A stretch of DNA of 32,336 nucleotides from Thomasclavelia sp. (GTDB lineage Bacteria > Bacillota_I > Bacilli_A > Erysipelotrichales > Coprobacillaceae): positions 1 through 32,336 of the forward strand of contig JAQVWN010000021.1 of NCBI GenBank assembly GCA_028749475.1, in the 5' to 3' direction. The first letter of the stretch is position 1. Each line of letters opens with the position of its first letter. The notes under the pieces are model-generated. The model saw only the letters and a list, made by a program, of their open reading frames with translations, was not told the origin of the DNA and did no database searches. The translations under genes were made by a program, and so were the position numbers. Shown here piece by piece: positions 17,506 through 32,242 of this stretch.

Positions 17506-18843
17506 ATGAAAAAGATGAATGTTGATTTATTACATGGAAATATTTTAAAAGGAATTCTTATTTTTGCTTTACCATTATTATTTTCTAATATCTTTCAGCA
17601 GTTATACAATACTGCTGATACTATGATAGTTGGTAATGCTTTAGGAGATGTTTCTTTAGCAGCGATTGGAGCAGCTACGCCCGTCTTTGAACTCTTAGTT
17701 GGATTTGCTCTTGGAGTCGGTAATGGATTAAGTATTGTGACGGCTAGAAGCTATGGTAGTGGCGATGAAAGTTTAATAAAAAAATCAGTTGCTAGTTCAA
17801 TCGTAATTGGATTTATCCTTTCGATTGTCATAGCTTTATTAGGACAAGTATTTTTATATCCTTTATTACAACTATTAAATACTCCAAGTAATATTATCAA
17901 TGAAGCTTATTCATATATATCTTTAGTAACATTATTTGTAATAGTAATGTTTTCTTATAACTTATGTGCCGGTCTTTTAAGAGCGATTGGAAATAGTATT
18001 ATGCCTTTAGTATTCTTAATCATTTCTTCTTTAATGAATATTGGTTTAGATTTATTCTTTATTGTCTTTATGGGACTTGGCATTAAAGGTGCAGCAATTG
18101 GAACAGTTATTTCGCAATTATTTAGTACAATTCTATGTTTAATTTATATTAAAACTAGATGTCCGATCTTAGTTCCAACTGCTAAAGACTTTACTCTTGA
18201 TAAAGAATTATATAAAGAACTGGCTGGTCAAGGATTTTCAATGGGATTTATGATGAGCATTGTTTCATCGGGAACAGTAATTCTTCAAAGTGCTATTAAT
18301 GGTTTAGGATATCTAACTATTGCTGGTCATACAGCTGCTAGAAAGATCCAAGCTTTTGGAACAATGCCAGTAGCTACGATAGCTTTAAGTATGATGACAT
18401 TTGTTTCTCAAAATAAGGGTGCCAATAATAGGGAAAGAATTAAAATTGGAATTAAATATGCTTTTTATATTTCTATTGCCTGGGGAATAATAGCTACTAT
18501 CTTAGCTTTATTATTTGCTAGACCATTAGTATCTTTAATCTCTGGCTCTTCTGAGAATGTTGTCATTGATAATGGCTCATTATATTTAAAAATAAATGCG
18601 CCATTCTATGCAATCTTAGGAATTCTACTTGTCCTTAGAAATTCACTGCAAGGACTAGGAAGAAAAATAATGCCTTTAGTTTCTTCAATAATAGAATTAG
18701 TTGGTAAAATAGTATTTGTAATCCTATTTATTCCAAGTTTAAAATACTTTGGAGTAATTATCTGTGAACCAATTATTTGGTGTTTAATGTGTACTCAATT
18801 AGCGTATGCGTTTTATACTAATCCATATATAAGGGGAGATTAA
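17506..18843 (+). CDS. MATE-family multidrug/toxin efflux transporter
   Basis: A 445-residue integral membrane protein with 12 predicted TM segments in two homologous halves. The first half shows FSNIFQQLYNTADTMIVGN and ATPVFELLVGFALGVGNG, typical of the MATE group common in Firmicutes; the second half shows AGHTAARKIQAFG and MTFVSQNKGANNRERIK. It probably exports cationic drugs or metabolites using Na+ or H+. AAAGGTG lies before the ATG. A HAD phosphatase gene starts one base after its stop, and an ABC exporter follows, suggesting one transcription unit. The palindrome over its -10 hints at local repression, but no regulator gene is adjacent. Confidence 0.92.
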   Translation: MKKMNVDLLHGNILKGILIFALPLLFSNIFQQLYNTADTMIVGNALGDVSLAAIGAATPVFELLVGFALGVGNGLSIVTARSYGSGDESLIKKSVASSIVIGFILSIVIALLGQVFLYPLLQLLNTPSNIINEAYSYISLVTLFVIVMFSYNLCAGLLRAIGNSIMPLVFLIISSLMNIGLDLFFIVFMGLGIKGAAIGTVISQLFSTILCLIYIKTRCPILVPTAKDFTLDKELYKELAGQGFSMGFMMSIVSSGTVILQSAINGLGYLTIAGHTAARKIQAFGTMPVATIALSMMTFVSQNKGANNRERIKIGIKYAFYISIAWGIIATILALLFARPLVSLISGSSENVVIDNGSLYLKINAPFYAILGILLVLRNSLQGLGRKIMPLVSSIIELVGKIVFVILFIPSLKYFGVIICEPIIWCLMCTQLAYAFYTNPYIRGD

Positions 18844-18844
18844 A

Positions 18845-19618
18845 ATGGATAGAAAATATATGTTTTTTGATATTGATGGAACACTAACTGATGAAAAAAC
18901 TAAAAAAATAGTCCCTAGTGCTTTAAAAGCTATTCGGGAGTTAGAAGATAATGGACACTTTGTTTGCATTGCCACAGGAAGAGCTCATTATAAAGCTGTT
19001 AACTTTGCAAGAGAAATAGGGGTTAAGAATCTTGTTTGTAGTGGCGGAGGAGCTTTAGTAGTAAATGATAAACTTATCTATAATGAACCATTAGATAATA
19101 AAAAAGCTAAAGCAATTATTAAAGAAGCCGAGGATTTAGGTATTGGTATCTTACTAATGTTAGATGATTCAATTGATGTTTATAGTAAGAATGATTTATT
19201 TGTTCAACAAGTTGGTAAAAGACAAGAACCAACTAATTATATCTATGATGAAAACTTAGATTATGATTCTTTAGATAAAATATATAAAATCTATTTATCT
19301 ATTTCATCAAAAGATGAAGATAAACTAACTCTTAAAGATACTTTAGGTTCTTTAAGATATGTTAAAGAATATTTAATGTTTCAATATGATGCCAAAGATA
19401 TTGGTATTAAAAGAATGATTAAAGAAGTTGGGGGAGAGGACAAAGATGTTTTTGTCTTTGGTGATGATGTTAATGATTTAGTGATGTTCAAAGAAGAATG
19501 GACATCTATTGCTTTAGGAAATGCTAAACAAGAATTAAAAGACAAAGCTTCATATGTAACTGATCTTAATATTAATGATGGTATTTATAAAGCATGTAAA
19601 AAATATAAATTAATTTAG
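18845..19618 (+). CDS. HAD-superfamily Cof-type phosphatase
   Basis: A 257-residue cytoplasmic hydrolase of the Cof (HAD IIB) type, which dephosphorylates sugar phosphates, nucleotides or cofactors. Motif I is FFDIDGTLTDE (nucleophile Asp9, acid Asp11), motif II is CIATGR, and motif IV is FGDDVNDLVMF. The cap domain lies between about residues 85 and 180. The catalytic set is complete. The GGGGAGA ribosome-binding site lies at the end of the MATE gene. The substrate cannot be predicted; the context (transporters on both sides) does not help. Confidence 0.9.
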   Translation: MDRKYMFFDIDGTLTDEKTKKIVPSALKAIRELEDNGHFVCIATGRAHYKAVNFAREIGVKNLVCSGGGALVVNDKLIYNEPLDNKKAKAIIKEAEDLGIGILLMLDDSIDVYSKNDLFVQQVGKRQEPTNYIYDENLDYDSLDKIYKIYLSISSKDEDKLTLKDTLGSLRYVKEYLMFQYDAKDIGIKRMIKEVGGEDKDVFVFGDDVNDLVMFKEEWTSIALGNAKQELKDKASYVTDLNINDGIYKACKKYKLI

Positions 19619-19629
19619 GGAGAAAATTT

Positions 19630-23263: not shown

Positions 23264-23433
23264 CTTATCTTTCTCCCTATGTATTGAAAATAAAATATCA
23301 TTTTTCAGCCTTAAATTCAACTATAATTGAAGGTTTAAGATACAGTCCAACACTAAAATAGGACAACTAAAGGGATATTGTTTTTGATAGAGTAATTAAG
23401 AAGTATAACGAAATGTTCTTTAACTATTTGGAA

Positions 23434-28463: not shown

Positions 28464-28498
28464 ATTTTGTATGATTAGTCTTAGTAGGGGGAATTATT

Positions 28499-29755: not shown

Positions 29756-29816
29756 TTCATATTTAATTCATATAAGTGTCATACTATAACTATGTCGACA
29801 AAAGATAATTAATAAA

Positions 29817-29894
29817 AGTATAGATGCCCCCTCTCCCAAATAAAAGCATCTATACTAAAAAGAAGAAGAAACTTTCCCAGTTTCTTCTTTTTTT
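29817..29894 (+). ncRNA. Two tandem hairpins with C-rich loops: 3' UTR or small RNA
   Basis: Hairpin 1: AGTATAGATGC and GCATCTATACT (11 bp) around the loop CCCCTCTCCCAAATAAAA. Hairpin 2: AAGAAGAAACT-TTCCC-AGTTTCTTCTT followed by a T-run, an intrinsic terminator. Both loops expose CCC. They may simply end the preceding mRNA. A weak promoter (TTAATT 29763-29768, TATAAC 29785-29790) could also produce a separate RNA of about 100 nt. Confidence 0.5.
29863..29894 (+). terminator. Terminator after the HdeD-papain fusion gene
   Basis: An 11-bp stem with a TTCCC loop and a clear T-tail (29888-29894). It is the last terminator before the XRE-hsdM unit. Confidence 0.9.
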
Positions 29895-30017: not shown

Positions 30018-30446
30018 ATGGACACATTTGGTAAAAGATTCAGGTTAGCCCTAGATTACAGAAATAAAGGAAAAAGGAAAAAAAACGCTGATTATCTGTC
30101 ACAGGAAAAGATAGCAATAATTCTTGGAACGAAGAGACAGCGAGTATGTGAATGGTTATCAGATATTAGAAAGCCTTCATTTAAGGAAACGGTAAAACTA
30201 TCCAAAATATTGGATGTTTCAGTAGTGTGGCTTATAACTGGAACAAATTTTGGTTACGATAAAGAAACAAAAAAAATTGAGAAAAAAAAGGCAACTGAAT
30301 ATCAAGAATTAATAGTGAAACAAGTAAAAGCACTTAATGATGTTTCGGCTTTATCCGGAATAGAACAAAGTATTCTTGAAATTCAAGAGATTCTAGAAAT
30401 AGATAATAGTAAAGAATTTGATGAAATGAAAGGGAAGAAGAAATGA
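30018..30446 (+). CDS. XRE-family (Cro/CI-type) HTH regulator linked to hsdM
   Basis: A 142-residue DNA-binding protein. Residues 1-75 form a Cro/CI-type HTH: FGKRFRLALDYR, LSQEKIAIILGTKRQRVCEWLSDIRKPS and LSKILDVSVVWLITG. The C-terminal part is charged and helical, perhaps for dimerisation. The frame is open upstream to 29928, but GAGAGGTG precedes ATG 30018. Its stop overlaps the hsdM start by four bases (ATGA), so expression of the two is coupled. A regulator in this position suggests control of restriction-modification timing, like C proteins, though it is longer than typical C proteins. Confidence 0.85.
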   Translation: MDTFGKRFRLALDYRNKGKRKKNADYLSQEKIAIILGTKRQRVCEWLSDIRKPSFKETVKLSKILDVSVVWLITGTNFGYDKETKKIEKKKATEYQELIVKQVKALNDVSALSGIEQSILEIQEILEIDNSKEFDEMKGKKK

Positions 30447-32242
30447 TAACATCAGAAGACATTAAAAGAAGATTATGGAATGGAGCAAACGATTTAAGAG
30501 GCTCTATGGATGCAAGTAGATACAAGGATTACATGCTAGGTTTATTGTTTTATAAATTTTTAAGTGATAAAACACTTGAAACTTTTCGACAAGTTTCAGG
30601 AATGAAAGAAGCAAGTGAAAAAGAAATAATTGAAGAATATACAAAAGCGATTGATTTAAATGGTAATTCTGTAACTAACATGTTACAAAAAGTACTTGGT
30701 TATTATGTTCAACCAAAATATTTATATCAACAATGGATTAGTGATATTGATAATGGATGTTTTGAGGTTCAAAAGGTGACAGATAGTTTGAATGATTTCG
30801 AAAGAACTATAGATGGTAGCAATGATTCTGATGACTTTAAAGGTTTATTTTCCAATTCTACATTAGATTTATCAGATACTGCTTTAGGAGCAGATTTGAA
30901 AACAAGAAATAATAACATCAAGCAATTAATCCAGTTGTTTGCAGATTTAAATATGGCAGACTTACAAAAAGGAGATATCCTAGGGGATGCTTACGAATAT
31001 CTAATTGGGATGTTCGCAATGGAATCTGGTAAAAAGGCTGGAGAGTTCTATACTCCTAGACAGGTTAGTGAAGTAATGGCTCAAATAGTTGCAAAATCTA
31101 GTAAGATTGAATCAATTTATGACGCTGCTGTTGGATCTGGATCTTTGTTATTGACAGTTAGTAAACATCTAGATAAAGAAGCTCAAAAAAATTTAAATTA
31201 TTACGGACAGGAAAAAAACACAGCAACCTATAACTTAACAAGAATGAATTTATTATTGCATGGTGTACGACCAGACAGAATGACTATTAGAAATGCTGAT
31301 ACGTTAGGGCAAGACTGGCCAGAAGATCCTTCAAGGCCAAGCGAAGGAGTTCAATTTGATGCTGTTGTTATGAATCCGCCTTATTCATTGAAAAAGTGGA
31401 ATAAAGAAGGAATTAAAGCTAGTGATCCTAGATTTGAATTTGTTGGAGTGTTACCACCTGACTCTAAAGGTGATTATGCTTTCTTACTACATGGTTTATA
31501 TCATCTAGGACAAAAAGGAACTATGGCAATTGTGTTACCTCACGGAGTTTTATTTAGAGGATCAGCAGAGGGCGAAATAAGAAAAAGATTAGTTGATAAG
31601 AATTATCTTGATGCAGTAATAGGCCTTCCTTCTAACCTATTCACTAATACATCTATTCCAGTTACAGTTATCATACTTAAAAAGGATAGAGGATTAAAAG
31701 ATCCTGTTTTAATCATTGACGCATCTAATGGATTCATTAAGTCGGGTAAGACAAACCAATTACAAGAAAAAGATATTGCTAAAATTGTAGACGCCTATGT
31801 AAATAAAACAGAGGAATTTGGGTATAGTCATCTAGCTTCATTACAAGAAATCAGTAAAAATGATTATAACTTGAATATTCCTCGCTATGTTGATTCTTAT
31901 AATGTTGATATTCCTCAAGATGTTAATGCTCATTTATTTGGTGGAATTCCAAATGAAAACATCAAGTCGCTAAAAATTCTACAAGAGGTAGTTCCAGATG
32001 TTTTAAAAGATTCTTTTAAAGAAATACGTCCTGGATATTCTGAATTATTAGTAACACCAGAGGAACTATCAAAAAATGTTCTTGGCAGTAAGCAAGTGAT
32101 TAAAGTTGAGGACAACATTAAGAAAGATGTTGATAATTATATTGATAAATATTGGAGAGTATTACGTAACCCAGAATCAAAAATAGTATCAAGTTTAAAA
32201 GAAGAAATGTGTACATTTGTAAATGATGTGAAACATAAATAA
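30443..32242 (+). CDS. hsdM: Type I restriction-modification DNA methyltransferase subunit
   Basis: A 599-residue N6-adenine methyltransferase subunit. The N-terminal HsdM domain shows LRGSMDASRYKDYMLGLLFYKFLSD. AGEFYTPRQVSEVMA leads into SAM motif I DAAVGSGSLLL (from D227) and the catalytic motif NPPY at 311-314. GDYAFLLHGL and LPHGVLFRGSAEGEIRKRL are usual in the family. The protein looks complete. HsdM needs HsdS for target recognition, and HsdR for cutting; neither is visible. The only sequence after hsdM is a convergent ORF, so HsdS is not directly downstream on the same strand. Overlaps the XRE gene. Confidence 0.95.
   Translation: MITSEDIKRRLWNGANDLRGSMDASRYKDYMLGLLFYKFLSDKTLETFRQVSGMKEASEKEIIEEYTKAIDLNGNSVTNMLQKVLGYYVQPKYLYQQWISDIDNGCFEVQKVTDSLNDFERTIDGSNDSDDFKGLFSNSTLDLSDTALGADLKTRNNNIKQLIQLFADLNMADLQKGDILGDAYEYLIGMFAMESGKKAGEFYTPRQVSEVMAQIVAKSSKIESIYDAAVGSGSLLLTVSKHLDKEAQKNLNYYGQEKNTATYNLTRMNLLLHGVRPDRMTIRNADTLGQDWPEDPSRPSEGVQFDAVVMNPPYSLKKWNKEGIKASDPRFEFVGVLPPDSKGDYAFLLHGLYHLGQKGTMAIVLPHGVLFRGSAEGEIRKRLVDKNYLDAVIGLPSNLFTNTSIPVTVIILKKDRGLKDPVLIIDASNGFIKSGKTNQLQEKDIAKIVDAYVNKTEEFGYSHLASLQEISKNDYNLNIPRYVDSYNVDIPQDVNAHLFGGIPNENIKSLKILQEVVPDVLKDSFKEIRPGYSELLVTPEELSKNVLGSKQVIKVEDNIKKDVDNYIDKYWRVLRNPESKIVSSLKEEMCTFVNDVKHK

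What the first reader, a model, noticed from the sequence alone, without database searches (positions are those of the whole stretch)
29817..29894. C-rich hairpin loops that can pair with the gene's own unusual SD: 5'/3' UTR switch or new small RNA
The loop of hairpin 1 offers CCCCCT (29827-29832) then TCTCCC (29832-29837). CCCCCT is the exact complement of AGGGGG (28486-28491), the ribosome-binding site of the gene that ends just upstream. TCTCCC is complementary to GGGAGA in the ribosome-binding sites of the HAD gene (18834-18839), the ABC ATPase (19618-19623) and aspartate kinase (minus strand, 23272-23277). In Staphylococcus a UCCCC motif in the icaR 3' UTR pairs with its own SD, and many Firmicute small RNAs use UCCC loops. 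SD complementarity is easy to get by chance, but the large C-rich loop in an AT-rich genome is striking.
Basis: partly seen in the sequence, partly recalled or inferred. Interest (0 to 1): 0.6.

Follow-up and report, generated by a model that had tools for sequence, protein, structure and literature searches.

The report
New C-loop small RNA family, Coprobacillaceae
The hairpin is part of a roughly 100-nucleotide small RNA gene, one of a previously unlisted family in gut bacteria (Thomasclavelia, Faecalibacillus, Massilimicrobiota and relatives), whose unchanging C-rich loops look built to block the ribosome-binding sites of messenger RNAs and whose genes mostly follow one regulator-like promoter box.

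Summary
The hairpin (29817-29856), its C-rich loop and a terminator (29858-29894) are real, and relatives show they matter. In one bacterial family (Coprobacillaceae, named from contig titles) the stem covaries (9 of 11 pairs with double changes; 0 of 500 shuffles) while loop CCCCUCUCCC is identical in 24 of 26 model hits. The feature is a separate gene of about 100 nt, found between different neighbours, with its own promoter: a TTCATA-N5-TTCATA direct repeat (29756-29772) just upstream of a -10. The strict box occurs 37 times in 30 of 43 family genomes (reversed control: 0); 32 of 34 distinct sites head a short terminated unit with C-rich motifs. The window's genome has a second one before pyrG. 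No Rfam family matches; Hfq is absent.
Best reading: a multicopy, Hfq-independent, trans-acting anti-Shine-Dalgarno RNA controlled by a response regulator, working like streptococcal csRNAs or Listeria LhrC but not shown related to them. Pairing with the neighbour gene's own Shine-Dalgarno sequence does not: complementarity is at chance level and the neighbour is not conserved. Regulator and targets remain unidentified; expression is unproven.

The parts
29756..29772 (+). Direct-repeat box TTCATA-TTTAA-TTCATA, 11-bp phase, occupying the -35 region; begins right after the DUF308 stop codon (ends 29755)
   Evidence: Strict form GTTCAYANNNAATTCATA: 37 sites in 30 of 43 family genomes, 0 for the reversed-pattern control; 32 of 34 distinct sites head a terminated unit with C motifs
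29782..29787 (+). -10 element (TACTAT), 9 nt downstream of the box; transcription start inferred at about 29794
   Evidence: Aligned with TATTAT/TATATT in relatives; box-to--10 spacing shared by the copies collected (the -10 letters were required by the search there). The generic sigma-70 scan did not list it
29794..29894 (+). Small RNA gene, about 100 nt (start inferred)
   Evidence: Promoter box, covarying hairpin and terminator; homologues in 27 of 43 family genomes at E<=0.1; no Rfam match
29817..29827 (+). Hairpin 1, 5' arm AGTATAGATGC
   Evidence: Fold; 9 of 11 pairs have changes on both sides in relatives
29828..29845 (+). Loop CCCCUCUCCCAAAUAAAA, the conserved C-rich (anti-Shine-Dalgarno) motif
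   Evidence: CCCCUCUCCC identical in 24 of 26 aligned model hits; the other two are the second type CCCCCUUCUUCCCC
29846..29856 (+). Hairpin 1, 3' arm GCATCTATACT
29858..29894 (+). Intrinsic terminator hairpin with loop UUCCC (29874-29878) and U tract
   Evidence: Fold; 37 of 54 box-driven copies carry CCC in the terminator loop
28499..29755 (+). Upstream gene: 418-aa membrane protein with DUF308 repeats; syntenic neighbour in part of the family, not a conserved target
   Evidence: Pfam PF03729; synteny; ribosome-binding sites of relatives
30018..32242 (+). Downstream HTH gene and type I restriction hsdM; in relatives pyrG lies here instead
   Evidence: Pfam HTH_3, HsdM_N, N6_Mtase; synteny

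Best explanation
The locus is a free-standing gene for a small RNA of about 100 nt, one of a multicopy family found in Coprobacillaceae. Shown by sequence: a covarying stem that displays an invariant CCCCUCUCCC loop, a terminator whose loop is often C-rich too, and a shared promoter made of a TTCAYA-N5-TTCAYA direct repeat just upstream of a -10 element. Inferred: a response regulator of the OmpR/PhoB type binds the direct repeat and switches on the RNAs; the exposed C-rich loop (and often the terminator loop) pairs with G-rich Shine-Dalgarno sequences (GGGAG, AGAGG, GAGGGG) of a set of mRNAs in trans and blocks ribosome binding. As Hfq is absent, this happens without it, possibly with another chaperone.
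For: Stem covaries while the loop does not. Homologues at different genomic neighbours, so not a leader or 3' UTR of one gene. Box found 37 times in 30 of 43 genomes against 0 for the control; 32 of 34 distinct sites followed by a terminator plus C motif, against 151 of 3000 random places. 54 candidate RNAs, median 105 nt, 50 with two or more C motifs, 37 with CCC in the terminator loop. Tandem copies roughly 150-220 nt apart in several genomes. A second copy in the window's own genome before pyrG. In Listeria LhrC, UCCC motifs in a hairpin loop, a single strand and the terminator loop were shown to bind the Shine-Dalgarno region (PMC4132741). csRNAs follow the same plan of direct-repeat box, -10 and terminator (PMC3091779).
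Against: No expression data. No target shown: exact 10-nt complements occur mostly as the antisense of the RNA itself; 8-nt complements before a start codon are only modestly above control; duplex energies with 70 local initiation regions are not significantly better than shuffled loops. The regulator is not identified: none of the seven Trans_reg_C (OmpR-type) genes found in the window's genome has an obvious TTCAYA-N5-TTCAYA box upstream, and the boxed regulator of six other genera gave no match in it at E<=1e-45. In Thomasclavelia the copy orthologous to the window's has a TTGACA-type promoter without the box, so control may differ between copies.
Confidence: 0.7

Rival explanations
1. Cis-acting 3'-UTR element of the DUF308 mRNA: the loop folds back on the gene's own AGGGGG Shine-Dalgarno sequence, as the first reader proposed (icaR-like).
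For: CCCCCT is the exact complement of AGGGGG 28486-28491; the gene ends at the box, so read-through would include the hairpin; DUF308 also lies upstream in some Thomasclavelia genomes.
Against: The RNA persists where no DUF308 gene is adjacent (directly after adhE in several Faecalibacillus-type genomes, tdk/prfA in G002, rRNA/ispF in G003). The DUF308 ribosome-binding site drifts. AGGGGG is not above chance. The promoter box is conserved at other loci.
Confidence: 0.07
2. The RNA acts by sequestering a protein or another small RNA through its C-rich loops (a decoy), not by pairing with mRNAs.
For: The loop is strictly conserved and repeated in multicopy form with two or more C motifs per RNA, which is also what a decoy would show; no conserved mRNA target was found.
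Against: No protein that binds C-rich loops was sought or is known in this family; in studied low-GC Gram-positive RNAs UCCC motifs pair with mRNAs (PMC4132741).
Confidence: 0.13
3. Only a transcription-termination region: two stacked terminator-like hairpins insulating the DUF308 operon, with no regulatory role.
For: The second hairpin is an intrinsic terminator and lies right after the gene.
Against: A terminator does not need an invariant 10-nt loop with a covarying stem, tandem copies, or the same promoter box in front of most copies.
Confidence: 0.04
4. Leader or attenuator of pyrG, which follows the RNA in many relatives.
For: pyrG is the downstream gene in eight of the ten relatives laid out, and B. 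subtilis pyrG is controlled by a C-rich attenuator (own knowledge).
Against: pyrG has its own GGGC start and attenuator-like hairpin further downstream; the RNA has its own terminator before it; in the window, G002 and G003 pyrG does not follow.
Confidence: 0.03

Closest known systems
csRNAs of Streptococcus (CiaR-dependent small RNAs; PMC3091779, PMC8186281)
   Same: Direct-repeat response-regulator box (NTTAAG-N5-TTTAAG) about 10 nt upstream of a -10; several copies per genome; short RNAs (51-202 nt) ending in a terminator; unpaired anti-initiation-region sequences; hfq apparently lacking.
   Different: Box is TTCAYA-N5-TTCAYA, not TTTAAG; csRNA anti-Shine-Dalgarno and anti-AUG sequences lie in unpaired regions between two stem-loops, here a C-rich motif sits in a hairpin loop; different bacterial family; regulator not identified.
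LhrC1-5 of Listeria (PMC4132741)
   Same: Multicopy RNAs with redundant UCCC motifs in a hairpin loop and in the terminator loop; two-component control (LisRK); binding at the Shine-Dalgarno sequence.
   Different: No Rfam hit to any sRNA family at the RNA; LhrC has a further motif in the single strand between the hairpins and binds Hfq, which is absent here.
UCCC-loop RNAs of low-GC Gram-positive bacteria (RNAIII, RsaE, SprD, FsrA; named in PMC4132741)
   Same: Use of an exposed UCCC motif as a general anti-Shine-Dalgarno key.
   Different: No sequence or structural similarity was detected by the Rfam scan.

Membership tests
csRNA (CiaR-dependent RNA) | CiaR box NTTAAG-N5-TTTAAG in the promoter | tested here: not met
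   Promoter carries TTCATA-N5-TTCATA
csRNA (CiaR-dependent RNA) | Direct repeat with 5-nt gap close upstream of a -10, followed by a terminator within about 250 nt | tested here: met
   32 of 34 strict sites; box-to--10 gap 9 nt in the window
csRNA (CiaR-dependent RNA) | Controlled by CiaRH | not testable with these tools
   No expression or binding data; boxes absent upstream of the window genome's seven Trans_reg_C genes by inspection
LhrC | Match to a described RNA family in Rfam 15 | tested here: not met
   No match at gathering score; only weak unrelated hits at E<=5 over the RNA loci, besides rRNA
LhrC | UCCC motifs in hairpin loop and terminator loop, several copies | tested here: met
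LhrC | UCCC motif in the single strand between hairpins | tested here: not met
   Linker between the hairpins in the window copy is one nt
Trans-acting base-pairing small RNA (general kind) | Free-standing gene with own promoter and terminator, neighbours not conserved | tested here: met
   (sequence evidence only)
Trans-acting base-pairing small RNA (general kind) | Conserved single-stranded seed with weaker sequence constraint on the stem | tested here: met
Trans-acting base-pairing small RNA (general kind) | Conserved complementary site in target mRNAs | tested here: inconclusive
PhoP (phosphate) regulon | Same box as the pstS promoter of these genomes | tested here: not met
   Where a box was found close before pstS (G003, G005, G023; a looser one in G000) it is of the TTTACA-N5-TTAACA kind, not TTCAYA repeats
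icaR-type 3'-UTR/5'-UTR pairing | Conserved pairing between loop and the same gene's Shine-Dalgarno sequence | tested here: not met
   Neighbour gene and its ribosome-binding site not conserved with the RNA

The most novel reading that the evidence does not exclude
In Coprobacillaceae one response regulator devotes most of its strong, conserved sites to a fleet of Hfq-independent C-loop anti-Shine-Dalgarno RNAs (one to several per genome, partly in tandem), an independent invention of the csRNA/LhrC principle that acts as a main post-transcriptional layer of these gut bacteria.
Probability: 0.5. Interest if true: 0.7.

Novelty: new variant of a known kind. Interest (0 to 1): 0.58.

Why it matters
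No match to this RNA was found in Rfam, and the two literature searches made here turned up no report of small-RNA regulation in Thomasclavelia, Faecalibacillus and their relatives, which are common gut bacteria. The family gives a ready set of genes, a promoter box and an invariant seed to test. It would be a further case, beside streptococcal csRNAs and listerial LhrC, of a two-component-type box in front of multicopy anti-Shine-Dalgarno RNAs, here in bacteria without Hfq, and so bears on how general that design is and what replaces Hfq.

Tried and rejected
PhoP/phosphate box: rejected, a different box stands before pstS where one was found. Own-Shine-Dalgarno switch and the named HAD, ABC and aspartate-kinase sites: chance level, DUF308 site not conserved. 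pyrG leader: rejected by synteny and separate pyrG attenuator. Short ORF: the start near 29792 gives six codons (MSTKDN), and relatives read ATG...TGA or GTGTCTTAA at this place, so no conserved frame (by eye). Phage-borne element: strict pattern gave no viral contig. Rfam family: none. Presence outside the family: none of 252 other genomes of the order, and all 8 class-level hits are family members. Conserved target by exact 10-mer: only the antisense of the RNA in most genomes. By 8-mer plus ATG: weakly above control, some same-genus repeats, no convincing orthologous target. Regulator search: an OmpR/PhoB-type regulator with TTCATATCTTTTTCACA-like boxes before its own gene in several of the six genera that carry it, but no match at E<=1e-45 in the window's genome.

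Full report
WHAT IS THERE. Hairpin 1 has an 11-bp stem (29817-29827 with 29846-29856) and an 18-nt loop, CCCCUCUCCCAAAUAAAA (29828-29845). It is followed after one nucleotide by an intrinsic-terminator hairpin (29858-29894, loop UUCCC). The stretch folds far better than shuffles (z -7.8). Rfam 15 has nothing at the gathering score in the window, and only weak unrelated matches at E up to 5 in the RNA loci of relatives, apart from rRNA genes near one of them.

CONSERVATION. A DNA search of 60 related genomes and inspection of the hits gave 12 genomes with the same hairpin. A covariance model of the hairpin core (R1, built from nine sequences) hits 27 of 43 genomes of the family at E<=0.1, 26 of 295 genomes of the order at E<=0.01, all in the same family, and 8 of 395 of the class, again all in that family. 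In the model-fitted alignment 9 of 11 pairs show changes on both sides, 95% of cells pair, and no shuffle reaches the covariation score (that alignment leans to the structure). The sequence-only alignment of nine shows 5 such pairs and again 0 of 500 shuffles for the score, and RNAalifold finds the same helix. The loop core CCCCUCUCCC is identical in 24 of 26 aligned hits; the two others carry CCCCCUUCUUCCCC. Note that nine of those sequences built the model. Named contigs with the hairpin include Thomasclavelia cocleata and T. saccharogumia, Faecalibacillus intestinalis and F. faecis, Longibaculum muris, Massilimicrobiota timonensis and Candidatus Stoquefichus massiliensis (a few unrelated contigs also match the pattern, as expected by chance). 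I therefore call the family Coprobacillaceae; that name is my inference from these titles.

A FREE-STANDING GENE. The common arrangement is adhE, optionally DUF308, the RNA, then pyrG. But the RNA lies between rRNA genes and ispF in G003, between tdk and prfA in G002, and between DUF308 and a type I restriction island in the window. Gene names other than the Pfam and NCBIfam hits are my reading of the translations.

THE PROMOTER BOX. Upstream lies TTCATA-TTTAA-TTCATA (29756-29772), 9 nt before a -10-like TACTAT (29782-29787). The strict form GTTCAYANNNAATTCATA occurs 37 times in 30 of 43 genomes; the reversed pattern never occurs. Of 34 distinct sites, 32 are followed within about 215 nt by a terminator and a C-rich motif, against 151 of 3000 random places in the same loci (the control places include the RNA genes themselves). 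With the looser box 54 distinct candidate RNAs were collected, 78-141 nt, median 105; 50 have at least two C motifs and 37 have CCC in the terminator loop. Several types exist: the window type; a second type (loop ACCCCCUUCUUCCCCAA) in tandem with the first in Thomasclavelia; a longer type with hairpins carrying UCCCCUC and UUCCCUCUCCC loops, twice in tandem in G035; and short types with ACUCCCU. In Thomasclavelia the first-type copy has a TTGACA promoter in place of the box. The box is not the phosphate box: where one was found close before pstS it is of the TTTACA-N5-TTAACA kind.

THE WINDOW'S OWN GENOME has two strict boxes: the window RNA and a second RNA with loop UUUUUCCCUCCCUU directly before pyrG on contig C27. 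C27 begins with hsdS-like pieces and an integrase-like domain, and the window contig ends in hsdM, so a restriction island probably split an ancestral tandem pair that relatives still have before pyrG (the contig join is inferred).

HOW IT LIKELY WORKS. Shown: structure, conservation pattern, box, terminator, copy number. Inferred: activation by an OmpR/PhoB-type response regulator (direct repeats in 11-bp phase over the -35 region are typical of this class, own knowledge) and pairing of the C-rich loops with G-rich Shine-Dalgarno sequences in trans. The inference rests on LhrC, where UCCC motifs in a hairpin loop, a single strand and the terminator loop were shown to bind a Shine-Dalgarno region (PMC4132741), and on csRNAs, which share the promoter and terminator plan (PMC8186281, PMC3091779). 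Hfq was not found in any of the 43 genomes while the same search found it in five control genomes.

WHAT IS MISSING. Targets: the exact 10-nt complement of the loop is rare outside the RNA genes. The 8-nt complement near a start codon is only somewhat above its control, and inspection gave no convincing conserved target. Over 70 initiation regions of the window's genome the mean duplex energy of the loop is equalled or beaten by 40 of 300 shuffled loops; the best local match is the phosphofructokinase ribosome-binding site GGAGAGG (start 16364), untested in relatives. Regulator: a PhoB-like regulator has TTCATATCTTTTTCACA-like repeats before its own gene in several of the six genera that carry it, but it gave no match in the window's genome at E<=1e-45; the seven Trans_reg_C genes found there show no such box.

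VERDICT. A real, conserved RNA gene family not found in Rfam. It works like csRNAs and LhrC by design, but fails their membership tests (other box, no Rfam relation).

Noticed in passing
window 30018-32242; L326 1-2044 (G000:C27): Type I restriction island: HTH gene and hsdM at the window's end; on contig C27 hsdS-like pieces in both orientations with an integrase-like domain, suggesting an invertible specificity gene. It seems to separate the two RNA genes.
   Followed up: partly
L133 about 1690-1750 (G000:C27, upstream of pyrG); L004 around 1700: pyrG in this family has a leader starting GGGC followed by a hairpin and U tract, like the reiterative-transcription attenuator known from Bacillus subtilis pyrG (own knowledge).
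   Followed up: no
L219 upstream of 1501 (G005:C5:630172): OmpR/PhoB-type response regulator with TTCATATCTTTTTCACA-like repeats just before its own -10, in several of six genera; possible autoregulated candidate for the box.
   Followed up: partly
L141 1533 and 2004 (minus strand), L142 1402, L152 1249 (G014): A genome without R1 hits still has TTCAYA boxes heading other C-rich short RNAs (ACTCCCT motifs), two of them as near-identical tandem copies about 470 nt apart; a more distant branch of the family.
   Followed up: partly
L158 849, L155 3910, L157 1555 (L155 and L157 read on the minus strand): Phosphate-type box such as TTTACATAAACTTAACA upstream of pstS.
   Followed up: no
window 16364: Phosphofructokinase ribosome-binding site AAGGAGAGG gives the best predicted duplex with the loop among 70 local genes.
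   Followed up: no
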